Of a stretch of DNA of 32,532 bases, positions 9,316 through 32,246 are shown one piece after another. Position 1 is the first letter of the stretch; every line of letters begins with the position of its first letter. The notes beneath the pieces are model-generated. The model did not search any database. It saw only the letters and a list, made by a program, of their open reading frames with translations, and was not told where the DNA came from. Position numbers and translations under genes: made by a program. The stretch is taken from assembly GCA_025201865.1 (NCBI GenBank), contig MU602926.1:1-32532 (forward strand). The letters run 5' to 3'. This DNA is from Ramicandelaber brevisporus. Taxonomy: Eukaryota > Kickxellomycota > Ramicandelaberales > Ramicandelaberaceae.

Positions 9316-9358
9316 ATGTTCGACAACATACGACAGGCTGTGCCTGATCGGCCACAAG

Positions 9359-9389
<31 letters not shown>

Positions 9390-12300
9390 GCAGAAGCAGT
9401 GGCAGCAGGTTGAGCTGACAAACTGGACATGCGCAGGCGGACATGCTGGTTTTGGTGTGGATGGCGACACGCCTATTCAGTCACCACAGCTACAACAGCA
9501 ACCACAGCTGCAACCACAGCACTCGTCGGAACTACGGCGCCGTCGTTTTAACCGCAAGAACTTGTCCATAACGCTGTCCTCAAAGGCCAGCTTAGCTTCT
9601 TTGCTGGCGGGCGATGGCGAGTCGGTAGCAAGTGATCAACAGCAGCAGCAAGTGCCCGCCACACCGTCTGTTATCAACACCATCAGTGGTGGCGGCAGCA
9701 GTAGCAACAACAGCAGCAACAGTGTCACAGGTCATTGTGATAACACTGCGTCAACGGAATCACTGAGAGCAGCCGCAACCGCAACAGCAACAGCAGCATC
9801 GAACACTATTGCCTCCGATGATGCCATGTGCGAAGAACTTGACCCAGTCGGCGTCGGTGTTTCTGTGACTCAGTTGCACTTGTCTCGTGAGCTAAATTTA
9901 GATAATGGCGCGGGTCAACCTCCAAACCCTCAATCCACCACTTCTATTCGCTCCGTCGTTATTGACCGCCAGCAACAACAGTTACAGCAGTTACAGCAGT
10001 TACAACAGGTACAGCAGCAACAGCAGCCACAGCGGTCGCAAAACCTCAACCCTCATCAAACACAAACAATGACAGACGCACCTTCGCAAGCAGCACCAGT
10101 CGCTCCGTCATTTCCAGCCATTGGTCCAATGATAAACGGACTCCCGAAGCGCGGAAGCATCGCTGCACTTCGAACAGGCAAGACACCCTCACTCAGTCAG
10201 CTACGCAGCAGCGTCATGCCGCCCACAGTCACCAACACAGACGCACCGCCAGGGGCTGCCGATGCCTCAGTCAACGCTAACATGCAACGCAGTGACCTGT
10301 TGAACGTCCTGCGAGATGGCATCGAGGGCGACAATGACAGCTCCAATCAGCGCCAAGCACTGTATGCAACACAGCCGGTATGTATCATGAACGGATTATA
10401 TCTTGGTGACGAACACAACGCAGCCAGCACAGCACAGCTATCACGCCTTCGGATCAGCCACATTTTGAATGTTGCTCGCGAAGTTGAGAATCCCTTCAAA
10501 ACTGCGTACATGACACGACAGCAGCAACAACAACAGCAGCAGCAACAGCAGCAACAACAGCAGCAACAAAAGTTGGACATGCGCAGAGCCTCTGCGCCTT
10601 CAGCTGCCAACTCACAGGATGCATCCCCTTTGACAGCAACTATCCCGCCCATGCCCCCGCTGCCACATGCCATCATTCAGCGAATGCCAACCGCAAATGG
10701 ATCTATAGAGCTGAAGATTCAAACTGAAAACTCGCCAAGTCTACCTGGATCTCCGGCATTCTCTGCAATGCCAGGTTCCTCTCCATTGATGATGCCGATG
10801 GGCAGCGGCAGTAATCAGCCTGGACGTCACTCCTTGGCGCGATCAAAGACACTCAACGGACTTCCGCCAGCACACATCCTCAACAGACGAGCCAGTGCAC
10901 GCAACCCACTTCGACCCCTCCCACCTCCTTTGACTTTACCGCAGCATGCACCTCCAATGCCTGATCTACCTCAACAGCAGTTCTTGGCTGCCCCAGCGGC
11001 AGTGAGTGTGCCCCAGGATCCACCGGCTGTGCATTCACGCTCGTCATCGGTTATCTCTTTATCATCGATTAATGAGACTACTGAGCAGTACGTTGTAGAG
11101 CTACAGGACGACGCGGACAGTGACACCGCCAGCACAGTCAGCAACAATCACGGCAATCACGGAAACCACAACAATCACATAGTTGGACCACCCGATTCAT
11201 CAACATCAACTACAACTACAACGTAGAATTGCAGGACGATGCGGACAGTGACACCGCCAGCACAGTCAGCAACAATCACGGCAATCACGGAAACCACAAC
11301 AATCACATAGTTGGACCACCCGATTCATCAACATCAACTACAACTACAACAACTACAACTACAACTATGCAAATTACGTACAAGAAGTTTTCATGGTCAC
11401 ACAGTGAAGAAGATCTACGGCCGCATTTTGATCAGGCATTTGAATTTATTGACACGGCACGTCGCGCTGGCTCGAGCGTGCTAGTTCATTGTCAATTAGG
11501 TGTATCTCGTTCAGCTACTCTAATTGTGGCCTATGTGATGAGATTACTCCGGCTACCTCTCAACGATGCATATAGCTATGTTAAAGACCGGTCTCCGTGC
11601 ATCTCACCCAATCTCGGTCTGATTTATCAATTGTTGGAATACGAAAAGGCACTGGGACTTGCCTCAAACAATCATCCTGGAAACTCAAACGGTGTGAATC
11701 CAGCAATAAGCAGCAGTGTTAGTGACATTGGGCCAGGCATCATTGGCGGAACACCAGGACGATTTGGAACACGGCGATTTACCACTCAGCAGCAATTACA
11801 GCCACCACAGCAGCCCCAGATATCGACACAGCGGAGAGCAACTGCACATCATCCAGGTCAGCTCAATGGGAGACATCATCCTGGACCGCTTGCCACCGCA
11901 CCAATGACAGTGGCGTCCAATGGATTTGCATTGAATGGAGATGGAGACGAGCCAAAGGCGGTTCGAAGGAGAAGCTGGAGCAAAAGCGATAATAAAAGTG
12001 ACAACGACACGCCAAGCATCCATAGCACAAACAGCTCTCATAGTAGAATCAGTAGTTCTGAGGAGCAGCACTCAATCATCAGTGGAACACTCTCTGTGCC
12101 TCAAACAAGCGTCCCATCTCTTCTGCAGATTCCAACGCGGCCCGACTCCCCCCGTATGGTGTCTTCATCCATCCCTCTTGGCATCGATGTTGGCCACTCA
12201 GCTACTGCCGTCACAGCGTCATCAGCCATCCTCACATCTTCTGTAGCTGCACCACTCACTCCTCTGACCGCTTATGCCACAATTCACGCACCATCGCTGC

Positions 12301-12677
12301 CCACTTCAGCTCGTCTTCCAATCAATGGTATTGATCCACCGAGATTTGATCAAGGGAGCTTCAATATGATGGGCAGCGGCCACCATAACGAAGCAGCATC
12401 GCCAGAGAACGAGAGAATGCCAGACTTGATCAGTCCAGCTCCAACAAGCGCTGACTCTTCGGCTCCGTCAAGTGCAATTACTGCATCTCAGCTTAATGGA
12501 CATCTCATGCCATCTCTGCTACTCAGACACCACCTGCATGTCCATCAATGCCATCTGTCGACCCAGCATGATCACCAGAAACAGCAAGAGGAGTCTGATG
12601 ACTCCATGAAGATGGACATTATTGAAGATGACGACGATGTATTTGGCTCTACATCTGCTCACGACCACCACACCTAA
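9316..12677 (+). CDS. Dual-specificity (MAP-kinase-type) protein phosphatase; frame interrupted by a 128-bp tandem duplication
   Basis: Two consecutive open frames (9316-11226, and to 12677 in another frame) encode one phosphatase. The first has CIMNGLYLGDEHNAAS and ISHILNVAREVENPF, the start of a dual-specificity phosphatase domain. The second has TYKKFSWSHSEEDL and the active site VHCQLGVSRSATLIVAYVM (HCxxGxxR, Cys codon 11490-11492). This is the fungal MSG5/PMP1 class, which inactivates MAP kinases. A 128-bp direct repeat (11095-11350) puts the halves out of frame. Removing one copy gives 1077 codons; splicing a GT-AG intron at 11095-11234 gives 1073. The catalytic domain is split by about 250 residues of Gln/Pro/Ser-rich insert, including Q17 (10519-10569). 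RRRRFNRKNLSITL (75-88) resembles a MAPK docking site. The N- and C-terminal regions look disordered. Confidence 0.85.
10519..10569 (+). repeat. CAG/CAA repeat encoding 17 glutamines inside the phosphatase domain insert
   Basis: Seventeen consecutive Gln codons with interspersed CAG and CAA, shortly after the NVAREVENPF strand of the phosphatase fold. It is part of the long insert that separates the two halves of the catalytic domain. Confidence 0.95.
11095..11350 (+). repeat. 128-bp direct tandem repeat that shifts the phosphatase frame
   Basis: Copy 1 spans 11095-11222 and copy 2 spans 11223-11350. They differ at four bases, all within the first 18 positions (11100/11228, 11101/11229, 11103/11231, 11112/11240). 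The remaining 110 bases are identical. In each copy's own frame the four changes are silent (GAG/GAA, CTA/TTG, GAC/GAT), so both encode VELQDDADSD. Because 128 is not a multiple of three, copy 1 runs into TAG at 11224-11226. The repeat ends in an ACAACT simple repeat. Confidence 0.97.
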
Positions 12678-12942: not shown

Positions 12943-15900
12943 ATGAGCACTAACCCGCGTCGTCCGCCGCGACCACGCCCACCTCCAGCTGCTGCAGGCT
13001 CACACGGCGCAGCGCGGCCGCGACCACCGCCTCCATCGGCTGGCTATGTGCCTCGACCACGGCCGCCGCCTCCTCCACAGGTTGCGCGTCCCGCGATGCA
13101 GCACCGGCCACCTCCAGCATCTGCAGCCATTGCGAGCGAGTCGACTGGAGCCTTTGACACGTTGCTCGTCTTTGACGACGATCTGCCAGCACCCTCTCTG
13201 GATAGCAGTCAGCCAGAGCCGTATACCATGCCCCAGCCACCAGCTGTGCCTGAAGCGAGTCCAGCGCAGACATCGACGTTGCGCGATGCCTCTTCCTCGG
13301 TGCCAGAGCCAGCTCCACCTGCATCGATGTCATCTCCACCTCCACCTCCATCGCTGCCTCCGTCGCTACCACAGCCTGTGCACATCCAACAGAATGTATC
13401 ACGCACATCATCTCCACGTCCAATGCATCTGCCTTCATCTCCTCCAGCTCATGCTGCATCCTTACCCGTGCGTACTGCTTCACCTCGCCCACCAAGCGTC
13501 TTCTCGCCTCCTCCACCTCCTCCACCTCCTCACCATCCACCGCCTCATGCTCAGCATTTGCCGAGAGGAACTGTGACCAGACCGCCTCGCCCACCGCGTC
13601 CTCCTCCTGCACATCGTCCACCTCCACCTCAGCCGCCACGTATCGCCAGTCCTGCAACCGGTTTGAGCCCACCCGATGTGCGTGAGGTGTCATCTCCCAG
13701 TGGTGCCGCGGTTGTGTCTCCTCCAATGCCACCTCCGCGTCCATCTCCTCAGATGCCAGCACATCGACCACGCCCACCGCCTCCTCCGCCTCACATGCGT
13801 GGCATGATTCGACCTGGGACTCCGCCTATGCCAAGACCACGCCCTCCTCCTCCTCCTCAGCACCAATCAGCGGCTGTTGTTCGTCCACCACCACCACATC
13901 CTCATCCTCATCCTCATCCTCCTCAGTTGTCGTCACCATCGCAGCCTCAGCCGCACACTGTTCCTGAAACCGAAGCTATGGTTAAAGTTGGAACTTCTGC
14001 GTTTGCGCTTGAATTTGGCGAGCCTGATGTCATGGAGTCTGCGTACGAACATGCTCTCAGTGGCAATATCCATGCACTTGTTGACTTGGTTACTCAGGAT
14101 TCAGCTCGTAAGCAGCTCTCCGAGGTGCCATTGAGCGAGCGGTTTACACTACTGGACGCAGTTCCCGAAGCTGCCCGCCCGCCTGCTCTTTATGCCCGTG
14201 TCATTTTGGCCATTTTGTTAGATCCGCACCGAGTGACTGGCGACGATATTCCGGTGGATATCCAGCGCGTGGTTGAATGGATTACTGCGCGCTGTATTGC
14301 AATTGACTCGTGCACTGGTGATCTGGATTATATTGGCACAATGGTTGACACTCTAGTTGATGACTCTGTTCTTACACTGCATTTGGCTGGATTGCGCTCT
14401 GACGTTATGTCTCTAAACAAGTATATATCTCAGTCTAAAGAGCAGGTTACATTGGAGAAGTTCATTTCGCTGGCACCGTTTGAACGTATTGCATTGTTCC
14501 TGGATGGATCCGATGCAGAGTCTGTTCGTCACATTATTAACACACTCATTCTGCCAAGTTTGCGCAGTAAACCAGCTGAGACGAGAACTGCGCTTTGTGA
14601 AAATATACTGGCCCGATCTGCGGGTGGTGAGTTAGATTGGGTAGCTGCAGTGCTGTCATTGGCACATAAACAACTCGCAGAGTCGACTACCGACCTCAAT
14701 CTCGATACAGAGTCCAGTTCTTCATCATCAATTGTATCATCTGTGATTGAGCTTGTTTGCATTCTGATTGGTTGTTTGATGTGCGGTTCATTTGTTGACA
14801 ACCCAAGTTCCATGGATGCTCTCCAGTCACTGCTTGCTTCACTTGTGCCTTCGTTCTCACCCGATGCCAAAATCGACTCTTCTTCTTCTGTGGATTTCGA
14901 TGCAGTTATTGATGCCCTGAGAGGTGGCTGTGCTGATGCGGATTCTGTGACTCCAAGCACCATTGTGTCATCTCTGTCTGGATATGATTCACAAAATGAG
15001 TCTCGCTCTGCATTCATCACGCAGGCAGCCACTGTAGCTCTCATCTTTGCACATGCATCTTGGACTTGTTCAGTGAGATATAATGCGACATATGTTGCAT
15101 CTCCCAAGTGGTTCGCTGTTCATTATGACAGTAAACGCGACCAAACCCAATTGATTGCACATATTCTACGTCCAATGCAGAAGCTTGCGAAAGATGCTGG
15201 AGGCGTCGTGAATCCACTGCGTCAATTGTTGGATGATATGTGCAGTCTCTCTGATAGTGGTGTTCTATCACTTATCAATGTGCACTATATTGCATCTGAG
15301 TATCTACATGCACTGTTATTGCTGGTTGTTGATGATAACAAGTTGATCGACTTTAGTGTTGAAACTAGTGGCGATTTGCGCCGTCGTGGTGTTCTTGATG
15401 TGAGTGACATTGAACGCATTACACTGTCAGTTTGTTCGGAGTTCTTTGATAGTGCAGAGTCTGGCTCGTCTCATGATGAGATGATAATTTGTGCCAAACA
15501 GTGTCTAAGTTTATTGCCAGACTCATCACCGGCCGTGGCCGCAATGCGCGATTTAATGGATTCAGTTGAAATGATGAACCAAGTGGCCTCGAATGCTGGT
15601 ATGCACCACTCTGCACCATCTCCTGCTCAAGTTCACCATGCTGTCGACAGATTGACACTCGCGAAGCACTTTTTGCTCGAGGTTGATGGCAATTTTGTTC
15701 ATCAAAAAACTGCTTTAGTGCGCAAACTTATTCAGAATTTGGGTTACATTGGAAACACTCATAGCGGTGACAGTGACATCACAATTCGTACAACTTCAGC
15801 ATTGGCCGATGCGATTGTCACTGTGTGGGCCATCTCTTCAGCATCTCAATCAGCCATTGGACAGCAACAGACGAGGCGCATTCTTGAATTGTCCGAATCA

Positions 15901-18900
15901 CTTGTTAAAACTATTTTGTCACGCGAGTGGCAGGATATTGAAGCATCTATTAACAAGGCTAGCGTGCCACTTCCCCAGCGCCTGTTATCTCATCCGCATC
16001 GTCAGTTGCACCCTGGTAGCCAGTCAGCAGACGCCACATCAGGCAACGAAGCATGGCGCTCAATCGGCTTACATCCAGCTGACATTGCTACCCATCTATC
16101 ACATCTACTTCTCGAACTGGTTCGTACAGGCGACTTTACAGAATATCACAAGGAGTCTCTACTTGGATTTGCGATTATGTTGAGCCCCGCCGATATGCTA
16201 TCTGAGATTATATGCGATTCAGCTGCTGCTCTTTCTGAGATTGGAACAGTCTCTGCTGGCAAGAAGCACTCCATTCCAGATACGCACGATGATGTGAAGC
16301 GCCTCAGATCAAGCTCGTCAGATACCAGCGAGTCTGTGTTTAATGTCGCTGTTTTGGCTGCAATCGATGACTTGCTATCTGTACCGCGTTCTACGGTGAA
16401 TACCAAGCGCAGTGATGTGCCCAAAGTGTCTCTATCGTCTGTTCACACATTTGATGCATCCGTGCTGGCCCAGAGTCTCAAGCTCGCTCGCCATTCTGGT
16501 TTGAAACGCAAGGACTTGGTTATCGAGCACCTTCGCTATTCACTCGCCACCCATCCGCCATCCAACCCAACCTCAAGCATTGTCAGTTCAGATACTGTTG
16601 CTCATGATGAGATTCTTGCTGAGGCCGCAGCCAAGTATCCACGCGCTCTCTTAGATTTACTAACTGCCGAGGTGATACCGCGCATTGCTGGAAATGATCA
16701 TGCTCTGCTTCGCACTGCATATCGTGGTTTGGTGACATCCCTTCAGTCGCCAAAGCGTACCAATCGATCAACCAATGACAGTGATGTTCTGTCTCAGCTG
16801 CAGGTTCGCATCGATCTCCTGGATGACATTATTGCCACTGGCGGCCCTCTTGTTGATTTGGATGTCAAGCAGCTCGTATCTCATGTGGCCGCTGGCGATG
16901 CATCTGAGATTGCTGAAATTATGTGGACATTTATTTGTGCTCAGCAGCTGCGACCTGACAATTATGAGCCGATTCTAAACATTGCTCAAAGCGCGTGCAA
17001 CCTTGTTCCATTCCCACAGCTTGATGGCTCGGTCGACCACGATTCCTCTGTCGATTCTACTGCACTGACAGAGCTCTTATTATCTGAACTGGCATCTCGA
17101 CTGATTAATGCTGCACTTGGCGAAGCTCGCTCAATGGCTATTGGTATGGCTGCTGGTGAACCAAGCAGTGCTGACGATGATGTACCAATTGTAACCGAGG
17201 CTCTTTCTCTGGTTGATTCCTGCTGGCAACAGTTGCATCCTGTCGTGCAAGCCGCCGACATTGCTATGGAATTTGACTCCGAATCTTCTCTGCTGTCGTT
17301 TGTAGCCCGCAAGACTGTTATTGATACTGCTCGCGGCTCCATTTTGGCTTCCCCTGACTTCGACGACGATGAAACGATGGCAGAGGCGGTCAAGAAGCTC
17401 ACCTCAGTTGGTACTAGACTTGCGTTCCTTGCTCAAATCGATGCTATTCGTGATCCGTTTTCATTTTGTCGCATTCCGTATGAAGACGTTGTTTCCATGG
17501 ATTCATCTGAGATTCAACAGCGTGTGCGCGATGTCATCAAGAAGCTCCTCACAGTGCATGCGGATGACATTGACCAAGAGCCAGTTGAGGCATATCTTAT
17601 TGTGAAGCTCGCGTTGCTCACCAATCAGACATTTGGTCGCGACACTGTTGATATTGTGGATGTGTATCGCCGCTCATTTGCCTCTGCACTGCGTGCTACC
17701 AATGATGCGCGTCCATCGCTGGACGCAGATGAGAATGAGGAAGATGTATACTCTCGACTGCTGAATGAACAGCTTGCTCCAGTATCAAATGTGCTTCAGA
17801 TCACTCAGTATGACTTTGGAACAGACGAAGATAGTCTCTCGTCAGCTCTGCAGGACATTTACTCATCAATGCATCGATTGACTATGGCTACCTGTGTCTC
17901 TGGCGATCTTCCTCCCATCGAGCCCCCGCTCTCAACATCTGCCACGAATGCTACGTCTCCAGATTTGACACAATCAATGGCTCGTGACTCCTTTGCCGCG
18001 TGGGTGCAGATGCGTAAATCGGCCGCAGCGTCGTCTGTTGTTGTCAAGATTCGGCCGCTTGTCCTTCTGGCGCTGATCACATTTGCTGACCAAGCATTCA
18101 ACCTCGAAGCAGCTGATTCCGCCACTTTGACTCGGCTTCAACTGCGTATCGCATCCACTCTGGCTGGTCAAGAAGATGAGATTGAGCAGGTGCACGAACA
18201 ACCACGGCAGCTGCAACAAGCTCAAGCTCAAGCTCAAGGAGAAGAAGAAGAAGAAGAAGAAGAGAAGCCTCAACCAACAGATGTGACTGAAAGGGATGAG
18301 TGGTCGACGTGGAACGATGCTGGCAGCTGGGAGGATCTTCCACAGCGCGTAGCTGAGTCTGTTGATGCAACTCCAGTTGAGACTATTGCTGACCGCAGAG
18401 ATACGGCTGGTAGCGATTTCTCATTGATTGAGGATCCATCTCCCGTTGTATCGCCACCACCACCACAGCCTGAGTCTGCTGCTGTAGATGAGAGTGCCAT
18501 TGACTTTGGCGAGTCTGACGCTGGATGGGGCTTTGATAGTGTATCTGTCGAAACAAGCTCGCCTGCTGAGCCTGAATCTGAACCTGAATCTGAGCCTGAG
18601 CCTGAACTTGAGCCTGAACTTGAGCCTGAGCACGCTCATGAACCAGAAAATGAGCCTGAACATGCTCATGAGCCAGAAAACGAGGCTGGACTTGTACATG
18701 AAGAGATTGGTGCTCAGTCAAGCCCTACTGAGGCGTCTGCTCCCGTCGCCATTGTTGAAGATGTGTCTGTCCCATCGCCAGTTCATTCACCAGTGCCCAC
18801 ATCCTCCCAAGTCGAGTCTACTTCTGTGCCGGTGCCAGTTCCAGTTCCAGCAGGTGACCCTGTGTCAGATGATACGCAGATTGACTTTGGTGCTTGGGGA

Positions 18901-21900
18901 TTTGACGGCCCGATTGATGCATTGATCGACACTTCAAGCGCAGACATGATGCGCGTTACTTCGCTACAAGCATCGGATGTCATGAACATGTTTGATACTG
19001 GTTCAGCTCAACCTCCATCATCAACTCAAGCGCAGCCTGAAGAGACTCGTTCCATCAGTGTTACTGAGCAACCTGCCATCGAAGAAGAAGAAGCGGCATC
19101 CGCAGCTACTGAAGCTGAATCTGGCTGGGACTTTGATTTCGATTCTACTCATCATGAGCCTGCTCCAGAGTTCATTGCTGGCACTGCTGTTTCTGCTGAC
19201 ACCGATCACGAGGCTCTTTCCACCGAACCTGTTGCGGCCAACAATGTATCTATTGATGAAGAGTCTGGCTCGGGCGTCGATGCTCAGCTGGATGATTCCG
19301 TCGCTGATGAGCCAGTTCCTTCCAATGCTGGTGCCGAAATTGAGGACAGCACTACTTCACATGATGGCGATGACACTTCACTGCCACAGCCACACGAAGA
19401 ATCCGGCTGGTCATTTGATGCCCCATTTGATGCTCCATATGATGAAGCAGCGCATGTAGTCGCCGATGAAGAACAGGTGTCTTCTGAACTTGAGCATGCT
19501 GAGCACGAGCAAGACATTGCTGTCGATATCAAGCCACCAGCCATTGATGAGGCTGCCACTGAGCATCTTGCTGAGGAGGATGGATGGAATTTCGATTCGG
19601 TTATTCATGACCATGAAGAAGATTCAGCTGACGCCGCAGTTCGTGATGCATCCATCGGACACGCTGGTACTGATGCCGGGATTCACGTCGATGAGCCCGC
19701 CCCTGCTGTCGCGCCTGAACTCCATGTCGATGATTCTGTGCCCACCGCTTGCAATGATGCTGATTACCAAGCATCATCTGAGGAGTTGACTATTGGTGAG
19801 CAGCTTGGTGACGAGTCTGGTTGGCAGTTTGACACGGTTATCGACGAACCAGAACTGGAGCCTGTCGACGCTGTCTTCGAGTCTGACTCTCTAGCTCCAG
19901 TTGTTGAGCCAGAATCTGATGTTGCTGCTTCAGTCTCTGAGGTTGATATCCCTGTATCTGTAAATGAGGATGTTCCACAGATTTTGGATTCTCTGGTCCC
20001 AAGTGAAGAGGATGAACGGCAGTTTGATGAAGTTGCTGCCGAACCAGCTGAGGATACTTCTGCTGTTGATACCATTCCTCAGGATGAAGAGGCTGCCACT
20101 GTTGATGTCATTGCCACTGAACCAGAGCCTACGGTTGATACCATGCCTGTCCCTGTTGAAGACGTTGTTGGCACTGATCAGCTGGCTGATGAAGATGGAT
20201 GGCAGTTCGATAATGTTGTTGCCGATGAAGCTGCGCCTCTGGAGACAGCTGTTGAGCACGAAACAGTCTCTGATACACTGGTTGCTGAGCCTGAGATCAC
20301 TGTAACATCTGATGACTCAATCTCTGCTCCTGCCGCCCCGGCTATCGATGTGTTTGTTGCCGAACAGCCTACTGAGGATGAGGGTTGGAATTTTGATGAC
20401 ATTGTATCTGAGCATATTGTCCCCGAGTCTGACTCTGCTGCCACTGCTGCGTTGCATGCTGACTCTGGTCATGAAGCGGTTGCTGCCCCAGCTGGCAATG
20501 TACCTGAGGCTGAGCATCTACTCGAAGACGATGGATGGAGATTTGATGACATCGCGTTTGACCATACTGCCGCCATTGCTGATGCTGATGCTGATGCTGC
20601 CACTGCTTTCCCTGAGGTTTCTACTGTACAAGAACCTACCTCTGATAGCCAAGTCTCTGTCTCTGAGCAGGAAACTTCAGTTGTGCCAGAACATGCCGAT
20701 GTTACCCAGGTTGAAGATGATGGTTGGAAGTTTGACACACTTGTTTCTGAGCACACTGCAACTCTGGTTGATACAGCCAATGAACAGCCTGAGCAGCAGA
20801 CTGTGTCCGAACCAGATCATGCTGACATTGTCCAGACACCAGCCGAAGATGAGTTGATTGCTTCTACCGATTTGCCATTGAGCGAACTGCCTGCCGAGGA
20901 ATCCGGATGGTCGTTTGATGCTCCCGCATTTGATGAGTCCGAGCTGATTATACCGCCTCAGATTGTTGAAACTCACGATGAAGATGCTCAAGTTGATACT
21001 TCTATTGTGGCCGTTGATAGCAATGAAGTTGTAATCGAAGCATCCGAATCACCTGAATCACCTGAATCGCCTGCCGAATCTGCTGGAGAGGCTGTTTCTA
21101 GCGAGTTGGTCACCACTGTTGCTGAACCCATTGCCACCGACCAACATCCTGAATTTGCTCAATCCGATATACCTTCCGGATGGAGCTCTGATGCAGACCA
21201 CGCCGCCGCTGATGCTGTCCATACCGAGCTTGTGTCTGACCAGTCGCATCCTGATGAAGTTAACGAAGCTACTGAATGGGACTTTGAGCAATATGCAATT
21301 GAAGACAGCGAACAACGTGAAGAACCAACCACTTCTTCTGTTACTACTGAAGATGTTAGCGCTGCTGACGAACTTGAATCGTGGCGCGCTGATGCCCATA
21401 AGCTTGCTGATATCTCTGAAGAAGATATTGTCCAGGCCGAGCCTCAGGTACCGTATATCGAACCACCTCCATCGAGTGAACAAGTGGATGCAGCCGATAT
21501 TACCTCTGCCGCCACCGCCGCCGCCGCCGCCGCTGAATCTGAATCTGGCTGGGACTTGGATGCGACCACCTTGGATATCCATGACGCTGGAGCTGAAGCT
21601 GGAGCTGGAGCTGAAGCTGGAGTTGAAGCCGAATCGGCTACTATCGAGCCTCCAGTTGAACCTCATGATATTGCTGTTTCAACCGAAGTTGTATATGAGC
21701 AGTCACCCGCGGATGCTGCAGAAGAACAATCTGCATCTGATTGGGGCTTTGATGAACCTGCACTGGCTGACATTCATGAAGAACAGCAGCTGCCTGATGC
21801 CACAACTCCACTTGTTGCCGAATCTGAAGCACCGCTCGTTGACGAGCCTTCTGAGCTGCTGAGTGGAGTGGCATCTCCATTGGATCGCGCCGCGGTCGAC

Positions 21901-22971
21901 ATTGATGGTGACGGTGAAGGTGAAGGCGAAGGTGATGTTTCGTCTGCAGATTCATCATGGGAGCGCGATTTCGGCACTGACCAAGTCTCGATTACTCCAA
22001 CCTTCGATGCTGTCCTTGTTGACAACGAATCAACCGTGCATGATATCCCGTCCGCCATGTCCGAACCAGCTGACGTGGCGCCAGAAATGTCCTCCTTGAC
22101 TGAGGATGTACGTGTTCCACGAGTGCTACGCAAGTTGTACGCGCTTGCCCACTCTCCATCTGCCGGTGGACAAGATATGGGTGCCATCTGCCGAGATTTG
22201 CTTGTGCAGCTGAGTGAGCCAGACAGACTGCCCACTAATGCTGTTTATGCAATGACTTGCTTCTTTGGCATGCAGATTCTACCGTCAAACTCTGAGTGTG
22301 CCGAGGAGATTGCCGAAGTGCTTCGTTCCATTGGATACACTCGCGAAGCTGTCATTTTCAGTCTGGTTTCGTCCGTACCGTCACTGGTCAGCGGCGCTCT
22401 CTCCATGCTGCGCAGCTCTGCATCTGACCTTTCGAGCGACCTCCTTGATGATCCTCTGGTTCAGCTGGCAGTCATGTCTGCGACAACTGCAGTGGATCCA
22501 TCTGAGCCCAGCAGCAAGTACACTGATGTCGTTCCGGCTATTACTCGACTGGTTGGCACTCCTCTGTTTGACAAGATCCTTTCTGCATTCCTTGGCGACT
22601 TCGGTGGCGTCTTTGCCTCCAGTTCGGCATTGAAACCTATTGCCACAACGGCAGCTGAGGCAAACATTGTGCTCGCCATTGTCGAGTGGTTGCAGTCATC
22701 TCGCAATCCGCAGCATCAGCTCCATGCCCACAGAATCCTCTTTGGGTACTTCCAGACGCCAACTGGATTGCGTGCTAGAAACGCTGGCTTTGCGGGTCTA
22801 CTCACTAGATTGCGCATGATTGCCAAGTACTTTGGTGGCACAGAGTCAGTATCTGAGATTGATCAGATCCAGCTGCAGCACATTCAGGATGCGATGGATC
22901 ACGATCAGTCATTTGGCGGACATCACCTATACCAGGCATGTCTCGCACTTTGCCATAAGCGCCTCTCTTAA
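12943..22971 (+). CDS. Giant Sec39/NBAS-like vesicle-tethering protein with proline-rich N-terminus and acidic W-x-F-D motif array (3342 aa)
   Basis: One uninterrupted frame. Residues 1-345 are Pro/Arg/Ser-rich with many PPPP and PRPPPPP runs. About 355-1780 is alpha-helical and matches the Sec39 pattern: LLDAVPEAARPPALYARVI (about 402-420), WITARCIAIDSCTGDLDYIG (from about 446), LRSDVMSLNKYI, LEKFISLAPFERIALFLDGS, and YHKESLLGFAIMLSPADML (from about 1069). Residues 1780-3010 are highly acidic and carry repeated G-W-x-F-D motifs. Residues 3050-3342 are a second helical region. Sec39/NBAS proteins belong to the ER-side Dsl1/NRZ complex, which captures COPI vesicles returning from the Golgi and works with ER SNAREs. 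It lacks the WD40 N-terminus of animal NBAS and is far longer than yeast Sec39. The start is the first ATG after a pyrimidine-rich leader. The family call comes from pattern recall, not an alignment. Confidence 0.68.
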   Translation: MSTNPRRPPRPRPPPAAAGSHGAARPRPPPPSAGYVPRPRPPPPPQVARPAMQHRPPPASAAIASESTGAFDTLLVFDDDLPAPSLDSSQPEPYTMPQPPAVPEASPAQTSTLRDASSSVPEPAPPASMSSPPPPPSLPPSLPQPVHIQQNVSRTSSPRPMHLPSSPPAHAASLPVRTASPRPPSVFSPPPPPPPPHHPPPHAQHLPRGTVTRPPRPPRPPPAHRPPPPQPPRIASPATGLSPPDVREVSSPSGAAVVSPPMPPPRPSPQMPAHRPRPPPPPPHMRGMIRPGTPPMPRPRPPPPPQHQSAAVVRPPPPHPHPHPHPPQLSSPSQPQPHTVPETEAMVKVGTSAFALEFGEPDVMESAYEHALSGNIHALVDLVTQDSARKQLSEVPLSERFTLLDAVPEAARPPALYARVILAILLDPHRVTGDDIPVDIQRVVEWITARCIAIDSCTGDLDYIGTMVDTLVDDSVLTLHLAGLRSDVMSLNKYISQSKEQVTLEKFISLAPFERIALFLDGSDAESVRHIINTLILPSLRSKPAETRTALCENILARSAGGELDWVAAVLSLAHKQLAESTTDLNLDTESSSSSSIVSSVIELVCILIGCLMCGSFVDNPSSMDALQSLLASLVPSFSPDAKIDSSSSVDFDAVIDALRGGCADADSVTPSTIVSSLSGYDSQNESRSAFITQAATVALIFAHASWTCSVRYNATYVASPKWFAVHYDSKRDQTQLIAHILRPMQKLAKDAGGVVNPLRQLLDDMCSLSDSGVLSLINVHYIASEYLHALLLLVVDDNKLIDFSVETSGDLRRRGVLDVSDIERITLSVCSEFFDSAESGSSHDEMIICAKQCLSLLPDSSPAVAAMRDLMDSVEMMNQVASNAGMHHSAPSPAQVHHAVDRLTLAKHFLLEVDGNFVHQKTALVRKLIQNLGYIGNTHSGDSDITIRTTSALADAIVTVWAISSASQSAIGQQQTRRILELSESLVKTILSREWQDIEASINKASVPLPQRLLSHPHRQLHPGSQSADATSGNEAWRSIGLHPADIATHLSHLLLELVRTGDFTEYHKESLLGFAIMLSPADMLSEIICDSAAALSEIGTVSAGKKHSIPDTHDDVKRLRSSSSDTSESVFNVAVLAAIDDLLSVPRSTVNTKRSDVPKVSLSSVHTFDASVLAQSLKLARHSGLKRKDLVIEHLRYSLATHPPSNPTSSIVSSDTVAHDEILAEAAAKYPRALLDLLTAEVIPRIAGNDHALLRTAYRGLVTSLQSPKRTNRSTNDSDVLSQLQVRIDLLDDIIATGGPLVDLDVKQLVSHVAAGDASEIAEIMWTFICAQQLRPDNYEPILNIAQSACNLVPFPQLDGSVDHDSSVDSTALTELLLSELASRLINAALGEARSMAIGMAAGEPSSADDDVPIVTEALSLVDSCWQQLHPVVQAADIAMEFDSESSLLSFVARKTVIDTARGSILASPDFDDDETMAEAVKKLTSVGTRLAFLAQIDAIRDPFSFCRIPYEDVVSMDSSEIQQRVRDVIKKLLTVHADDIDQEPVEAYLIVKLALLTNQTFGRDTVDIVDVYRRSFASALRATNDARPSLDADENEEDVYSRLLNEQLAPVSNVLQITQYDFGTDEDSLSSALQDIYSSMHRLTMATCVSGDLPPIEPPLSTSATNATSPDLTQSMARDSFAAWVQMRKSAAASSVVVKIRPLVLLALITFADQAFNLEAADSATLTRLQLRIASTLAGQEDEIEQVHEQPRQLQQAQAQAQGEEEEEEEEKPQPTDVTERDEWSTWNDAGSWEDLPQRVAESVDATPVETIADRRDTAGSDFSLIEDPSPVVSPPPPQPESAAVDESAIDFGESDAGWGFDSVSVETSSPAEPESEPESEPEPELEPELEPEHAHEPENEPEHAHEPENEAGLVHEEIGAQSSPTEASAPVAIVEDVSVPSPVHSPVPTSSQVESTSVPVPVPVPAGDPVSDDTQIDFGAWGFDGPIDALIDTSSADMMRVTSLQASDVMNMFDTGSAQPPSSTQAQPEETRSISVTEQPAIEEEEAASAATEAESGWDFDFDSTHHEPAPEFIAGTAVSADTDHEALSTEPVAANNVSIDEESGSGVDAQLDDSVADEPVPSNAGAEIEDSTTSHDGDDTSLPQPHEESGWSFDAPFDAPYDEAAHVVADEEQVSSELEHAEHEQDIAVDIKPPAIDEAATEHLAEEDGWNFDSVIHDHEEDSADAAVRDASIGHAGTDAGIHVDEPAPAVAPELHVDDSVPTACNDADYQASSEELTIGEQLGDESGWQFDTVIDEPELEPVDAVFESDSLAPVVEPESDVAASVSEVDIPVSVNEDVPQILDSLVPSEEDERQFDEVAAEPAEDTSAVDTIPQDEEAATVDVIATEPEPTVDTMPVPVEDVVGTDQLADEDGWQFDNVVADEAAPLETAVEHETVSDTLVAEPEITVTSDDSISAPAAPAIDVFVAEQPTEDEGWNFDDIVSEHIVPESDSAATAALHADSGHEAVAAPAGNVPEAEHLLEDDGWRFDDIAFDHTAAIADADADAATAFPEVSTVQEPTSDSQVSVSEQETSVVPEHADVTQVEDDGWKFDTLVSEHTATLVDTANEQPEQQTVSEPDHADIVQTPAEDELIASTDLPLSELPAEESGWSFDAPAFDESELIIPPQIVETHDEDAQVDTSIVAVDSNEVVIEASESPESPESPAESAGEAVSSELVTTVAEPIATDQHPEFAQSDIPSGWSSDADHAAADAVHTELVSDQSHPDEVNEATEWDFEQYAIEDSEQREEPTTSSVTTEDVSAADELESWRADAHKLADISEEDIVQAEPQVPYIEPPPSSEQVDAADITSAATAAAAAAESESGWDLDATTLDIHDAGAEAGAGAEAGVEAESATIEPPVEPHDIAVSTEVVYEQSPADAAEEQSASDWGFDEPALADIHEEQQLPDATTPLVAESEAPLVDEPSELLSGVASPLDRAAVDIDGDGEGEGEGDVSSADSSWERDFGTDQVSITPTFDAVLVDNESTVHDIPSAMSEPADVAPEMSSLTEDVRVPRVLRKLYALAHSPSAGGQDMGAICRDLLVQLSEPDRLPTNAVYAMTCFFGMQILPSNSECAEEIAEVLRSIGYTREAVIFSLVSSVPSLVSGALSMLRSSASDLSSDLLDDPLVQLAVMSATTAVDPSEPSSKYTDVVPAITRLVGTPLFDKILSAFLGDFGGVFASSSALKPIATTAAEANIVLAIVEWLQSSRNPQHQLHAHRILFGYFQTPTGLRARNAGFAGLLTRLRMIAKYFGGTESVSEIDQIQLQHIQDAMDHDQSFGGHHLYQACLALCHKRLS
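18298..21963 (+). other. Acidic tryptophan-motif array within the Sec39-like protein
   Basis: After a Trp triplet (W1787, W1790, W1796), acidic sequence carries Trp motifs at residues 1862, 1985, 2062, 2156, 2215, 2294, 2420, 2482, 2532, 2595, 2656, 2747, 2779, 2814, 2870, 2934 and 3006. Ten are exactly G-W-x-F-D preceded by two or three Asp, Glu or Ser; 1985 and 2934 are A/D-W-G-F-D. Position 2359 keeps Q-F-D but has lost G-W. From 2156 to 2656 the spacing is 50-79 residues, mostly 59-65. Between motifs lie Glu/Pro/Ala/Val-rich linkers, including EPES/EPEL repeats at about 1875-1915. Confidence 0.95.
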
Positions 22972-26740: not shown

Positions 26741-27157
26741 GCTATTGTGCCAACGATGCTAAAGTGAAAAACAGTGTGCAGTGGTGTGTGTAGTTGTGTG
26801 TCTGTGTGTAGTAGCGGTGTACTCGCGGTGTGAAGAGACGAAGTCCCCAGGCCGTCGCTTGGTTACCACTTCCATTCTCAATGAACGATGAGGGTGTATC
26901 GCCCCCTCCCCCTACCACTAACAAGCGTGGCTTGGGTCACCATCGCCATCATAAACAGCCGGCGAAGACGATGAAATGAGGCGATATTTTGAATGTGGAT
27001 GGTCGTTCATGATTGCGGAAGTGGACGACGGTCTTCCTCGGCATGACTGCGTTCTTGGCACGGCGGGTCAGTTCTACCACATCAAACTACTCCAATTTTA
27101 TTACTGTTTCTTCTTTTTTTTGTTGTACTTTCCCTCTTGTCGCTGGCTGTTGTCGAG
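26741..27157. other. Divergent intergenic region between secreted Ala-rich protein and FAS1 protein genes
   Basis: About 400 bases that must carry both promoters. A CA/GT-rich leader lies at 26770-26815, a C-rich run (CCCCCTCCCCC) near 26902-26912, and a pyrimidine-rich tract with T8 (27108-27137) just before the FAS1 gene start. No clear TATA box and no gene are seen. Confidence 0.5.
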
Positions 27158-27181
27158 ATGTCGCTGGCTGTTGTCGAGATG
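27140..27181 (+). repeat. 21-bp tandem repeat that duplicates the start codon of the FAS1 gene
   Basis: Two perfect copies of a 21-bp unit starting TCGCTGGCTG and ending GAGATG (27140-27160 and 27161-27181), followed by the partial copy TCGCTGG. Each unit ends in ATG, which creates two in-frame start codons, at 27158 and 27179. Confidence 0.95.
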
Positions 27182-30100
27182 TCGCTGGTACGAGCCATCT
27201 TGGTAGTACTGTGTGTGCTTTGCACGTTCTTGGCACAGGCAGCTACGCAAACGGTGGTTGATGTGCTGTCTCAAGACCCAGAGTTTGCGGCCTTTATTAT
27301 TCATCTCCAGCATGCGAGACTCATCCCGTCTCTGAACAGACTACGCAATGTAACTGTGTTTGCACCCACAAACGCGGCCATCCGAGAATGGCAGGCTGAA
27401 CGCAATGCTCAAAGTATTGGAGCAGAATGGATACCACGCGACTTGCTCATGAACCACGTTGGAGTAAATGAAGTCCTCGCACTTGATGAACTGCATTCTG
27501 GCAAGATTATTGACTCGTGGGCAGTGAGATACGATGCTAAATCAGCATCCCTGAAAGAAGGTGATGATGACCAGACTGGTGTTGTGCAGCGTATTAAAGT
27601 CAAATTGAACAAAGTCAGCAATGGCGATGAAGGCGAGGAAGTTGACCAAATTACATTGGACAGTGGTGCACGAGTAATTGCAGGCGACTACAAAGGAACA
27701 CTGTGCGTTATCCACAAAATCGACGCACTTGTCAAGCCATTGCCATCCATTGCACAGGTTCTTGGTATGGACAGCAGCGTTAACACCAACAGTGATGGAG
27801 ATGGTAGTGGGGATGGAGATGGAGATGGAGATGGAGATGGCGAAGATGATGTATATGCAGAGGCGCGAAAGTTCATTCGTGGATCAGAGGAGTTGAGTCG
27901 ACTTGTGCATAGCCATTCAGATGGTGATTTGACATTCTTTGTGCCACAAAATGGATCGTTTGCCTCGGCTTTTCTCGATGTCGAGCAGCAATATCTGCTG
28001 AGTGAGAAATCCAGTAATAAAGATACATTGGGTGCAGAGGATGACCTCCACCGACTGATTCATAGCCATTTTGTCAACTTTGGACCAGCTGTGTTTGTGG
28101 ATAGAGTTGGACAGGATGGCTCCAAGGATGTAACATCGATGGAGGGCCGTAGTTTAACTGTGACTGTTGGAAGCGATGTAAATGATGTTAAACTGCATAC
28201 GAATGGTGATGAATTGTCAACCAGAGTGGTTACCAGGGATATTGTGTGTTCAAACGGTGTTATCCAACTGGTTGATTCTGTGCTTCCGCCCCGGTCACTT
28301 GTGTTTACAACAGCCAAATACTTGATTGGTAGAAATGCAACCGAATATGTCAGAATGATGCAAGAATTTGGACTGCGCAGTGTGTACTTGGATGACAGTA
28401 AACACAATGACACCAGAAGTGATGATGAAGCTGATAACGTGCCTCGGTTTACTCTCTTGGCACCAACAAATGCAGCAATCTCTCGATGGGTTAATGAACA
28501 GCCAGCCAGTCGGAGTGAAGTGCGCGATTTCTTGCTGTATCATGTAGTACGTGGCAAATATCTGCACTCTGATTTGCGAGATGGACAAACACTGCTGACT
28601 GAGTTATTCTCTGAATACGAAGCAGTTCATCATTCAAAATCCGATCATTTACGCCATCGTGTGCGAGTTGACGTTGACATTGAGTCTGAATCCATTGCAC
28701 GCGAGCTTAACTCCATGCGCGATGCAGTTTATTTCAATGGCGCTCCCTCCCAAAGTCACATTGGAGACTATACCAAACACACTTCATTCTTCTTATTGGA
28801 AAATGCATATTTAGCTCCTCAGCCACTGATCAACACTCTTATTCAGGATCTGCGCACCACTCGGTACATTTCGTATCTGTACACATCTGGCATTGCCACA
28901 GAAGTGCAAAACTCAAGAGCAGCAACTCACTTTGTGCCTCTGGACTCGGCATTTGACTCGGCACAAATGCTGATGGGGTATCTGACGCTTCCTGAATCTA
29001 CCCCAAGATCACTGTTGGCCGATTTATACCGCACCCATGTCGGAATATCCATCGACAGCGATCATGTGATTGCTGGTGGAATGGCTTATACCAGTGACTT
29101 GACTGATATTGGTGATAAGATGGTTATAAAGACATTGGCCTCCAAGAACGATCCATCAAAATTCACTGGAGTAGAGATGGAGAGAACCGCTTCGGGTGTG
29201 CAGATATCCGCAGGTAACTCGGCTGCGGCCAAGGTTGCAGTTCATGATGTGGCATCCACTGTTGGCGTTATTCACCTTGTGGACAAAGTGCTCGTTCCAA
29301 GCAGTATTGCTGCCAACATCACTACTCACAATTTGGCTCGCGGCTTGCGTACATCCAGTAGATTCCTCTCGTATGCTGCTGACTATGGCCTCGAAGATCG
29401 CCTGATTGACCCTGTTGATCGCAGCAAATCTAATGCCACTGGATACGCCGTGTTTGTTCCGACAGACCGTGCCTTTGCCAGACTGCTGTCTGTGCTTGAT
29501 CCTTCGCCCGTAGCTCAGTCGTCGTTATCAGTCGCGCCGTATCCAGGTGTTCCTCCGCCAGTTAATATGACCAAAGCCCTGGAACGAATCATGCAGCTAC
29601 ACATTGTGCCTATTCGGCCTGTCAACCACACTCCAGCTACCCTGGAAGATGAATCTGAAGGAAGTGTGCCCGAGTGGCCCAAACTGGTTGATGATAACGC
29701 ATATCCCACGCTGCTTAATGACACTTCGCTACTTGTCCGAGAGGTTGACGAAGGCAGATATGTGGTGCAGGTTAGAGACTCATCAATGACATGGAGTGGA
29801 AGCACAGCTACTGTTACTAGAATAGGCACGGCTAGCAACGGTATCGTATATGAGATTGACTGGGTTCTTGTTCCCGATGACATTGATGGTTCTGGTAAAG
29901 GTGGCTGGTGGGCTTGGCTGCTGGCTGGCGGTGGAATACTTGGTTCGCTGGCCACAGTTGCTGCGGCCTCCTCAGGCACTCCCTTCTTTGGCGTAGCTTC
30001 TACTACCAATGCTGCTAGTGCTACTACTACCACCGAAGCAGACGCATCATCCGAACAAGCTGGCACAGCTATCCTTGTGGCTGGTGATGGTGAAATCGAT

Positions 30101-30223
30101 GCCATCACAGTGTCTATAGACGCTGGCTCATCCACCAATGCTGACGAAGACAGCAGTGAATCACAACCATTACTGTCTCAACAACCTAACAGCACTAACT
30201 CATCTAATGGCCCCACTGAATAG
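27158..30223 (+). CDS. Type I membrane protein with five FAS1 (fasciclin) domains (1021 aa)
   Basis: The signal sequence is followed by five FAS1-like domains at about residues 32-193, 235-377, 383-556, 558-715 and 721-907. Recognisable H1 motifs are VTVFAPTNAAI, LTFFVPQNGSF, FTLLAPTNAAI, THFVPLDSAF and YAVFVPTDRAF, and several domains end with GVIHLVDKVLVP-type H2 strands. A Gly/Trp-flanked transmembrane segment (about 916-938) leads to an acidic Ser/Thr-rich tail containing ESQPLLS, an ExxxLL sorting motif. The plan matches fungal FAS1 proteins of the vacuole or cell surface, which mediate adhesion or have unknown roles. A (DG)n acidic run lies at about 211-230. N-glycan sequons (NVT, NAT, NIT) suit a luminal face. 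ATG 27158 is the first in-frame start; ATG 27179 gives the more typical signal peptide MSLVRAILVVLCVLC. Confidence 0.88.
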   Translation: MSLAVVEMSLVRAILVVLCVLCTFLAQAATQTVVDVLSQDPEFAAFIIHLQHARLIPSLNRLRNVTVFAPTNAAIREWQAERNAQSIGAEWIPRDLLMNHVGVNEVLALDELHSGKIIDSWAVRYDAKSASLKEGDDDQTGVVQRIKVKLNKVSNGDEGEEVDQITLDSGARVIAGDYKGTLCVIHKIDALVKPLPSIAQVLGMDSSVNTNSDGDGSGDGDGDGDGDGEDDVYAEARKFIRGSEELSRLVHSHSDGDLTFFVPQNGSFASAFLDVEQQYLLSEKSSNKDTLGAEDDLHRLIHSHFVNFGPAVFVDRVGQDGSKDVTSMEGRSLTVTVGSDVNDVKLHTNGDELSTRVVTRDIVCSNGVIQLVDSVLPPRSLVFTTAKYLIGRNATEYVRMMQEFGLRSVYLDDSKHNDTRSDDEADNVPRFTLLAPTNAAISRWVNEQPASRSEVRDFLLYHVVRGKYLHSDLRDGQTLLTELFSEYEAVHHSKSDHLRHRVRVDVDIESESIARELNSMRDAVYFNGAPSQSHIGDYTKHTSFFLLENAYLAPQPLINTLIQDLRTTRYISYLYTSGIATEVQNSRAATHFVPLDSAFDSAQMLMGYLTLPESTPRSLLADLYRTHVGISIDSDHVIAGGMAYTSDLTDIGDKMVIKTLASKNDPSKFTGVEMERTASGVQISAGNSAAAKVAVHDVASTVGVIHLVDKVLVPSSIAANITTHNLARGLRTSSRFLSYAADYGLEDRLIDPVDRSKSNATGYAVFVPTDRAFARLLSVLDPSPVAQSSLSVAPYPGVPPPVNMTKALERIMQLHIVPIRPVNHTPATLEDESEGSVPEWPKLVDDNAYPTLLNDTSLLVREVDEGRYVVQVRDSSMTWSGSTATVTRIGTASNGIVYEIDWVLVPDDIDGSGKGGWWAWLLAGGGILGSLATVAAASSGTPFFGVASTTNAASATTTTEADASSEQAGTAILVAGDGEIDAITVSIDAGSSTNADEDSSESQPLLSQQPNSTNSSNGPTE

Positions 30224-30447: not shown

Positions 30448-32246
30448 ATGTAAGTGCACGACTGCTCACTCCATCCACCCGTCCTTGCACCAGCGGGGAG
30501 GCGATCGTGAAGAGATCTGGTCTAGACGAGTAAATCAGCGCAGACAGAGCAGACTGACAAAACACCGTTTATTGCTTCCTATTCTTTATATCACAAATGC
30601 ATGACTCTGGTTGTTGATCTAACGCTGTATGCGCAAACAGGTCGGCGTTAAAGTCACTGAATCCGAACGCAGAGCAGACGCGTGCTGGACAAGCATATTC
30701 CATCCTGGCATCAGCTGCAATTGGATTGGTGGAGGTTGTAAAGTCCAATTTGGGACCACGGGGCACATTGAAGATGCTGGTGGATGGCGCAGGACAGATT
30801 AAGATTACGAAGGATGGAAAGGTACTGTTGACTGAGATGCAGATTCAACATCCAGCGGCAGCAATGATTGCACGTGCAGCCACAATGCAAGATGAGATCA
30901 CCGGCGATGGAACTACTACAATTGTTTTGTATGTTGGCGAAATGCTGCGCTTATGTCAGATTCCATTGACTGAGGATATCCATAGACGAATTCTCGCCAA
31001 CGGCTTTGACTTGGCTTTGGAGGAATCTCTCAAGTTCTTGCAGGATTTCCAGACCAAGCCAGCAGCTGTCAAGATTGATCGTGAACTGCTCATCTCAGTT
31101 GCACGCACTTCCCTCTCTACTAAACTGGACAGCAAGCTGGCCAATGCCATGGCTGAAGTGGTTGTTGATGCCATTTTGACAATTAAGCGTGATGGAAAGC
31201 CAATCGATTTGCACATGGTTGAGATTATGAAGATGCAGCATCGCACTGAAACCGAGAGCAGACTCGTTCGCGGCCTCGTGCTTGACCACGGTGCCCGCCA
31301 TCCTGACATGCCAAAGCAAGCCAAGGATGCCTTTATTCTCACCGCCAACGTTTCCCTTGAGTACGAGAAGACTGAAATCAACTCTGGCTTCTACTATTCC
31401 AACGCTGAGCAGCGCATGAAGTTGATTGAGTCCGAGCGCAAGTTTGTTGACGAGAAGGTCAAGAAGATTGTTGACTTGAAGAACATTGTCTGCACTCCAG
31501 ACAACAAGAAGACGTTTGTTCTCATCAACCAGAAGGGTATCGATCCGCTCTCTCTCGACATCCTGGCCAAGCACGGTATCATTGCCCTGCGCCGTGCCAA
31601 ACGCCGCAACATGGAGCGCCTTCAGTTGGCCTGTGGTGGCACCGCTGTGAACTCAGTCGATGACCTGACTCCAGATGCACTTGGTCACGCTGGCCACGTG
31701 TACGAGCACGTTATTGGCGAGGACAAGTTCACCTTTGTTGAAGACGTTGAGAACCCAGAATCCGTGACCATTCTCATCAAGGGTCCAAACCCACACACCA
31801 TCCAGCAGATCAACGATGCCGTCCGCGATGGTCTGCGCGCTGTTCGCAATGCTGTCGAGGACCAATCCGTTGTTCCAGGCGCCGGAGCCTTCCAGGTGGC
31901 GTGTGCTCACCATTTGCTGACTAAGTTCAAGCCTACCGTCAGTGCCGATGTTGCTCACGGCGTTGAGGTGTTTGCCAAGGCTCTGCTTATTGTCCCCAAG
32001 ACTCTCGCTGCCAATGGTGGTTACACGATCCACAAGGCAATGGCTGAGCTCCAAAACGATATTCAGCGCGGCCAGCGGGTTGTCGGACTGGATCTGAAGA
32101 CGGGCGAGCCGATGGACCCGACGGTGGAGGGCGTGTGGGACAACGCGTGCGTGGTGAAGCACCAGTTGACGAGCGCGGCCGAGCTGGCGCGCAATTTGCT
32201 GCTGGTCGACTCGATTGTGAAGGCGGGCCGCTCGCTTAAACAGTAA
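30448..32246 (+). CDS. CCT6: T-complex protein 1 subunit zeta (CCT6), start codon split by an intron
   Basis: Group II chaperonin subunit of the cytosolic CCT/TRiC ring that folds actin, tubulin and WD40 proteins. Joining 30448-30449 (AT) to 30641-32246 (G...) gives 535 residues starting [20 protein letters not shown], which aligns with known CCT6 N-termini; the family is about 530-546 long. Visible motifs are [19 protein letters not shown], the nucleotide-binding GDGTT (89-93), [57 protein letters not shown], Asp397 in [12 protein letters not shown] (catalytic Asp position) and VVPGAGAF. Exon 2 alone has no suitable upstream in-frame ATG; the first internal ATG (30726 frame, Met) would lose the first 29 or so conserved residues. 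Codon use becomes more GC-rich toward the 3' end. Confidence 0.93.
30450..30640 (+). other. Intron interrupting the CCT6 start codon (191 nt)
   Basis: Donor GTAAGT at 30450, branch-site-like CTAAC at 30619-30623 and acceptor AAACAG ending at 30640. Removing it joins AT to G and makes the ATG in front of SALKSLNP. No other acceptor or donor gives the conserved N-terminus with a start codon. Confidence 0.82.

What the first reader, a model, noticed from the sequence alone, without database searches (positions are those of the whole stretch)
18298..21963. Sec39-like tether carrying about 17 acidic Trp motifs (G-W-x-F-D): a possible multivalent COPI-capture array
Seen: ten exact G-W-x-F-D motifs and about seven variants in a 1.2-kilo-residue acidic region, regularly spaced near 60 residues in the core (W2156 to W2656). 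Known: in the yeast Dsl1 complex a disordered acidic loop of the Dsl1 subunit uses a few Trp motifs to bind alpha- and delta-COP, while Sec39 is only a scaffold. Inference: here coat capture has moved to, or been greatly amplified on, the Sec39 subunit, giving a high-avidity, possibly phase-forming vesicle tether. I know of no described Sec39 family member with such an array.
Basis: partly seen in the sequence, partly recalled or inferred. Interest (0 to 1): 0.88.

Follow-up and report, generated by a model that had tools for sequence, protein, structure and literature searches.

The report
Sec39-like tether with tryptophan motif array
A soil fungus encodes an unusually long version of a vesicle-docking protein that carries a long acidic loop studded with repeated tryptophan motifs, which probably grip the coat of arriving transport vesicles at many points, a job done in yeast by a different subunit.

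Summary
One open frame of 3342 codons (12943-22971 +) has ten exact G-W-x-F-D motifs in an acidic, predicted disordered region (residues 1786-3007), ten further Trp, and one decayed copy (ER instead of GW) in the ~62-residue register. In 20,000 shuffles at most one exact motif arose; the pattern also stands out when all 20 Trp serve as anchors. Pfam Sec39 matches residues 438-873 above its curated cut-off. The genome is most likely Ramicandelaber brevisporus (delta-COP 100% identical). It encodes delta-COP with its mu-homology domain, alpha-COP, Use1 and Sec20, and a weakly matching ZW10/Dsl1-like protein without any W-x1-6-[WF] motif. No Piwi domain was found, which weakens the Argonaute-hook rival. 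Best reading: a Dsl1-complex tether whose coat-capturing Trp motifs sit, amplified, on the Sec39 subunit instead of the Dsl1 subunit. Array, selection and Sec39 kinship are well supported; COPI binding is inferred, not shown. Conservation in relatives could not be tested: two protein searches found nothing. Phase separation has no evidence.

The parts
12943..22971 (+). Single open frame of 3342 codons plus stop, Sec39-like protein
   Evidence: codon usage of its four segments agrees with TCP1, alpha-COP and delta-COP genes of the same genome (r 0.59-0.77; array in the five other frames 0.05-0.27)
12943..13974 (+). Proline-rich N-terminal part, residues 1-344 (121 Pro), disordered by charge and hydropathy; no beta-propeller matched
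13975..18282 (+). Helical part, residues 345-1780; residues 345-1200 modelled as nearly all helix at low confidence
   Evidence: (mean pLDDT 40.9, single sequence)
14254..15561 (+). Pfam Sec39 (PF08314) match, residues 438-873, profile 107-557 of 753
   Evidence: 3.6e-8, 32.8 bits, cut-off 22; 5.8e-9 on residues 345-1780
18298..21963 (+). Acidic region with 20 Trp, residues 1786-3007: the motif array
18301..18330 (+). Trp cluster WSTWNDAGSW (W1787, W1790, W1796), N-terminal edge of array
18523..18537 (+). GWGFD, W1862
18892..18906 (+). variant AWGFD, W1985
19123..19137 (+). GWDFD, W2062
19405..19419 (+). GWSFD, W2156
19582..19596 (+). GWNFD, W2215
19819..19833 (+). GWQFD, W2294
20014..20028 (+). 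Decayed copy ERQFD in register (position 2359 is Arg where the others have Trp)
   Evidence: best-scoring place of the array outside the 8 core copies when the G and W columns are left out (F and D columns included)
20197..20211 (+). GWQFD, W2420
20383..20397 (+). GWNFD, W2482
20533..20547 (+). GWRFD, W2532
20722..20736 (+). GWKFD, W2595
20905..20919 (+). GWSFD, W2656
21178..21192 (+). looser variant GWSSD, W2747
21274..21288 (+). variant EWDFE, W2779
21547..21561 (+). variant GWDLD, W2870
21739..21753 (+). variant DWGFD, W2934
22003..22968 (+). C-terminal helical part, residues 3021-3342, which makes the array an internal loop
   Evidence: (residues 3030-3342, mean pLDDT 47.1, best blocks 55-74); no Pfam match

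Best explanation
This is the Sec39/NBAS-type subunit of the Dsl1 vesicle-tethering complex of a Kickxellomycotina fungus. A disordered acidic loop of about 1200 residues, between its long helical part and a short C-terminal helical part, shows ten or more copies of a short peptide, roughly [DE][DE]xGWxFD. Each copy would bind as an extended W-x-F peptide in the delta-COP mu-homology domain (and perhaps alpha-COP) of COPI vesicles coming back to the ER, so that one tether can hold one coat at several points or hand it from site to site; Use1 and Sec20 would then drive fusion. Shown here: the array, its selection, Sec39 kinship, presence of partner genes, no such motif in the ZW10-like protein found. 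Inferred: complex membership, COPI binding, avidity.
For: Pfam Sec39 above cut-off, the only match in the genome at E 0.001. Ten exact motifs, at most 1 in any of 20,000 shuffles; W-anchored enrichment of G-1, F+2, D+3. Synonymous sites of the motif codons are saturated (Gly third base differs in 0.69 of pairs, 0.68 for random Gly codons of the gene) while spacers have fallen to 0.11 identity, 0.09 expected (the four fixed columns define the exact rows, so their lack of amino-acid change is by choice of rows and only the saturation and the W-anchored counts are informative). 16 of 20 array Trp fit W-x1-6-[WF], expected 21%; 1 of 10 in the helical part. Delta-COP with mu-homology domain (E 5.4e-27 to 5fk0, recalled to be the yeast domain), alpha-COP, Use1, Sec20 in the genome. 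ZW10/Dsl1-like protein without the motif. Published: acid-flanked Trp motifs of the Dsl1 loop bind delta-COP (passages).
Against: No binding test. The partner is inferred from kinship: other domains read Trp/Phe-acidic peptides. Of two ArfGAP proteins found, the 572-residue one has W-x1-6-[WF] only inside its ArfGAP domain, the longer one only in a low-complexity N-terminal stretch and its PH domain; neither has an acidic GWxFD, so no second user of the motif in the COPI cycle was seen, and none of 39 other exact DNA matches in the genome lies in an acidic frame like the array. The delta-COP domain is net acidic here (14 K+R, 28 D+E), though so are the two solved ones (21/38 and 25/36). Two protein searches found no relative of the Sec39 part or the array. 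RINT1/Tip20 and Zw10_N were not found. F-x-x-[VIL] in 7 of 10 exact motifs could also fit an Atg8 motif.
Confidence: 0.5

Rival explanations
1. The array binds another trafficking partner: an AP/GGA ear or other coat domain that reads Trp/Phe-acidic peptides, so the protein is a general multivalent adaptor-binding scaffold rather than a COPI tether.
For: Disordered acidic regions with many short aromatic motifs are typical for clathrin-adaptor ligands (recalled). The genome has two further mu-homology proteins besides delta-COP.
Against: The protein is of the Sec39 family, whose complex handles COPI vesicles (passages); ear motifs as recalled (WxxF, DPF, DFxDF) have another spacing than W-x-F, found in 13 of 20 Trp.
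Confidence: 0.15
2. The array is an Atg8-binding (LIR/AIM) array, with F-D-x-[VIL] as core, making Sec39 an ER-phagy or autophagosome-linked protein.
For: F at +2 is followed by V, I or L at +5 in 7 of 10 exact copies and acidic residues precede it. A paper links the Dsl1 complex to the autophagy SNARE Ykt6 (PMC7726795, title and start of abstract in the listing only).
Against: The best conserved positions are G-1, W0, F+2 and D+3; +5 is P or D in 3 of 10 and V, I or L in only 7 of 20 by the W-anchored count (p 0.04). W-x-x-[VIL] is met in 0 of 10, since +3 is Asp.
Confidence: 0.12
3. GW-repeat Argonaute hook: the Trp array binds an Argonaute protein.
For: Many G-W pairs in a disordered region recall the GW/WG hook (recalled).
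Against: No Piwi match in the assembly, while the same search rings in 1 of 14 control genomes. Conserved F+2 and D+3 are not part of the hook as recalled.
Confidence: 0.03
4. Neutral or near-neutral repeat expansion of a low-complexity acidic region in one species, without a specific partner.
For: The gene has simple acidic repeats, other genes read here have homopolymer runs, one array copy has decayed, and no relative with the array was found.
Against: Spacers have diverged to near-composition identity (0.11, expected 0.09) while G, W, F, D recur around Trp; synonymous positions are saturated, so this is not a recent duplication.
Confidence: 0.12

Closest known systems
Dsl1p acidic 'lasso' loop of the yeast Dsl1 complex (binds delta- and alpha-COP)
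   Same: Disordered, acidic, internal to a helical subunit of the same kind of complex, Trp motifs.
   Different: Here on the Sec39-like subunit, about 1200 residues, ten or more regular copies with Phe as second aromatic residue and mostly Gly before Trp; the yeast loop is on Dsl1p (passages) and has few motifs (recalled).
Fungal Sec39/Dsl3 and animal NBAS/NAG
   Same: Pfam Sec39 domain in a long helical protein.
   Different: Many fungal orthologues are described as about 80-100 kDa and NAG as 2371 residues with an N-terminal beta-propeller (passages); this one is 3342 residues with a proline-rich N-terminus, no propeller matched, and an array.
delta-COP ligands Gcs1p and ArfGAP1
   Same: Use similar Trp-based motifs for the delta-COP mu-homology domain (passage).
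   Different: One or few motifs in an enzyme, no array (recalled).
Multi-motif endocytic scaffolds such as Eps15 (DPF) and AP180 (DLL)
   Same: Works like: many weak copies on a disordered chain (recalled).
   Different: Other motif, other coat, not a tether (recalled).

Membership tests
Sec39 (PF08314) | Sequence match above the curated Pfam cut-off | tested here: met
   32.8 bits against 22; 35.4 bits on residues 345-1780 alone
Sec39 (PF08314) | Long alpha-solenoid fold | tested here: inconclusive
   Nearly all-helical model of residues 345-1200 but mean pLDDT 40.9; no sequence match to a solved Sec39 chain at E up to 10
Sec39 (PF08314) | Binds Use1 and the Dsl1/ZW10 subunit | not testable with these tools
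   Genes for Use1 and a ZW10-like protein exist
Dsl1/NRZ complex | Dsl1/ZW10 and Tip20/RINT1 subunits encoded | tested here: inconclusive
   ZW10_C 22.7 bits, over its cut-off only with neighbours in frame, 23.3 against 25.8 by hmmscan, Zw10_middle 19 against 23.6; a human zw10 chain only at E 0.2 among 24 mostly unrelated chains; Zw10_N and RINT1_TIP1 no match, without a positive control
Dsl1p COPI-binding loop | Acidic disordered loop with Trp motifs between folded parts | tested here: met
   Charge-hydropathy and composition; C-terminal folded part at low confidence
Dsl1p COPI-binding loop | Carried by the Dsl1/ZW10 subunit | tested here: not met
   Carried by the Sec39-like protein; ZW10-like protein has 3 Trp, none in W-x1-6-[WF]
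delta-COP Trp motif | W-x(1-6)-[WF] in a disordered acidic stretch (form recalled; class described) | tested here: met
   16 of 20 array Trp
delta-COP Trp motif | Binds the delta-COP mu-homology domain | not testable with these tools
   No peptide-domain modelling offered; domain present in genome
LIR/AIM (Atg8) | [WFY]-x-x-[LIV] core | tested here: inconclusive
   W core 0 of 10, F core 7 of 10 exact copies
GW-type Argonaute hook | An Argonaute in the same organism | tested here: not met
   No Piwi match; assembly may be incomplete

The most novel reading that the evidence does not exclude
In this fungal line the COPI-capturing function of the Dsl1 complex sits on Sec39 as a more than ten-fold motif array, independently of the yeast Dsl1p loop: a second origin of coat capture in the same tether, on another subunit, with high avidity that could let one tether hold several coat units or condense tethers with vesicles.
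Probability: 0.4. Interest if true: 0.78.

Novelty: new variant of a known kind. Interest (0 to 1): 0.6.

Why it matters
How tethers that lack the yeast Dsl1p loop catch COPI vesicles is largely open; a review notes that Dsl1 relatives of aquatic fungi, plants and animals have no such loop and that mammals use UVRAG (passage), and another reports the proposal that Sec39 lost its propeller in parallel with Dsl1 gaining the acidic region (passage). A Sec39-like protein without a propeller match that carries acidic Trp motifs itself, beside a ZW10-like protein without them, makes such an exchange of functions between subunits directly testable with peptides and yeast strains.

Tried and rejected
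Protein search with residues 355-1780 (2521 candidates scored) and with the array core 2140-2680 (2429 scored): nothing, although the same database holds this species and Coemansia, Martensiomyces and others. By the tool's length rule only proteins of about 1838-5848 residues were eligible, and shared 5-residue words are needed, so shorter or very diverged Sec39 relatives would be missed. Unexplained: the window's own protein was not returned either (its public gene model may be cut differently). I therefore cannot say whether relatives have the array.

Sequence match to solved structures for the whole protein and the helical part: no Sec39 chain. Structure models of residues 345-1200 and 3030-3342 came out at low confidence, so no fold search was made. 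Argonaute hook set aside for lack of a Piwi match. Idea that GWxFD is a genome-wide element rejected: 39 of 39 other DNA matches are outside net-acidic frames like the array; my first measure, acid in the 12 upstream residues, did not separate one of them and was replaced. Idea of a recent tandem duplication rejected: TRF reports no repeat of that period, six copies of 52 bases, five of them 62-77% identical to the reference copy, saturated synonymous sites. A hydrophobic pair after the motif looked good in the core but is weak over all 20 Trp. Papers: in the listings (two of them, 10 and 34, empty) and the passages I saw, no description of Trp motifs on Sec39 or NBAS; (20 of 33 listed) shows no paper on trafficking in Ramicandelaber. 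Seen as passages only: PMC7145657, PMC4868844, PMC4206994. Suckling et al. 2015 was not held and is recalled.

Full report
What was checked. The finding covers residues 1786-3007 of one open frame of 3342 codons, window 12943-22971 on the plus strand. All four segments of the frame have codon usage like other genes of the genome (r 0.59-0.77), and the array in its five other frames does not (0.05-0.27), so it reads as one coding exon; no transcript was available.

The array. Ten exact GWxFD copies and ten further Trp lie in a region with 322 acidic and 16 basic residues in 1240. Chance is excluded (at most 1 exact motif in any of 20,000 shuffles). Since exact copies are picked by the motif, I also used all 20 Trp as anchors: Gly at -1 in 12, Phe at +2 in 13, Asp at +3 in 16, acid at -4 in 14 and at -3 in 12 of 20. 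In the core the copies are about 62 residues apart; the one double gap holds a copy that reads ER where the others read GW. It is the best-scoring place outside the eight core copies when the G and W columns are left out (2.3, next -3.4; F and D columns are included). Gly third bases differ between copies as often as between random Gly codons of the gene (0.69 against 0.68), and spacers are at 0.11 identity with 0.09 expected: the copies are old or arose apart, and the residues are kept by selection. TRF reports no tandem repeat of this period; a repeat scan shows six copies of 52 bases, five of them 62-77% identical to the reference copy, a trace of common descent. The DNA pattern for GWxFD has 49 matches in the genome (13 for the reversed control); 10 are here and 39 elsewhere. 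All 39 were read: 2 have a stop inside, and net acidity over -20 to +25 is at most 3 against 10-14 in the array. Variants such as AWGFD were not searched genome-wide.

What protein it is. Pfam Sec39 matches residues 438-873 with 32.8 bits against a curated cut-off of 22 and it is the only such match found in the genome. No beta-propeller was matched; the first 344 residues are proline-rich. The part after the array is again predicted folded and helical (low confidence), so the array is an internal loop, as the Dsl1p loop is.

Which organism. The genome's delta-COP is 100% identical over 99% to a protein named as Ramicandelaber brevisporus, a Kickxellomycotina fungus. Twelve matches to a chitin synthase family agree with a fungus, though 4 of 14 prokaryote controls also match that family.

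Partners. Found: delta-COP with its mu-homology domain, alpha-COP, Use1, Sec20, a ZW10-like protein on two similar contigs, two ArfGAP proteins. Not found at E 0.001: Zw10_N, RINT1_TIP1, Piwi; the first two have no positive control. The ZW10-like protein has 3 Trp and none in W-x1-6-[WF]. Its family match is weak and solved structures give no significant support, so its orthology to Dsl1 is likely, not sure. The 572-residue ArfGAP has W-x1-6-[WF] only in its ArfGAP domain; the 1375-residue one only in a low-complexity N-terminal stretch and its PH domain.

How it most likely works. In yeast, acid-flanked Trp motifs in a loop of Dsl1p bind delta-COP and alpha-COP and dock COPI vesicles at the ER (passages). 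The consensus W-x(1-6)-[WF] for delta-COP is recalled. The array fits: 16 of 20 Trp, against 21% expected by composition and 1 of 10 Trp in the helical part. A Sec39-like protein with many such motifs, in a fungus whose ZW10-like protein has none, is best read as coat capture placed on Sec39. The step from motif to binding is inference. The net charge of the delta-COP domain does not help either way. Against it stands that no second user of GWxFD was seen in the COPI cycle, and that conservation in relatives was not testable. Atg8 binding remains possible through F-x-x-[VIL] in 7 of 10 copies, but the best conserved positions speak for W and F as the core.

Novelty. The listings and passages named in Tried and rejected show no report of Trp motifs on Sec39 or NBAS; the library is open-access papers only and most listed papers were not opened. 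I rate it a new variant of a known kind: a known tether, a motif of a known type, on another subunit and many-fold.

Noticed in passing
G000 contigs C500 and C504 (L016, L017, L018): The ZW10-like gene lies on two short contigs of about 10.5 kb with like content but small differences in the neighbouring gene, which suggests two haplotypes kept apart in the assembly.
   Followed up: partly
window 9316-12677 +: Dual-specificity phosphatase domain split over two adjacent frames (weak first part in 9316-11226, main part in 11229-12677), so this gene probably has an intron, unlike the Sec39-like gene.
   Followed up: no
window 27137-30223 +: 1028-residue frame with five Fasciclin domain matches beside a TCP-1 chaperonin gene at 30726-32246.
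   Followed up: no
L019 alpha-COP, W923 and W964 of the 1313-residue frame: alpha-COP itself has an acidic linker with two GW sites (GGWGDEDLGF, GSGWGGDDDD), a possible competitor for the same pocket on delta-COP.
   Followed up: no
window 18566-18702: Degenerate acidic hexamer repeats between the first two exact motifs.
   Followed up: no
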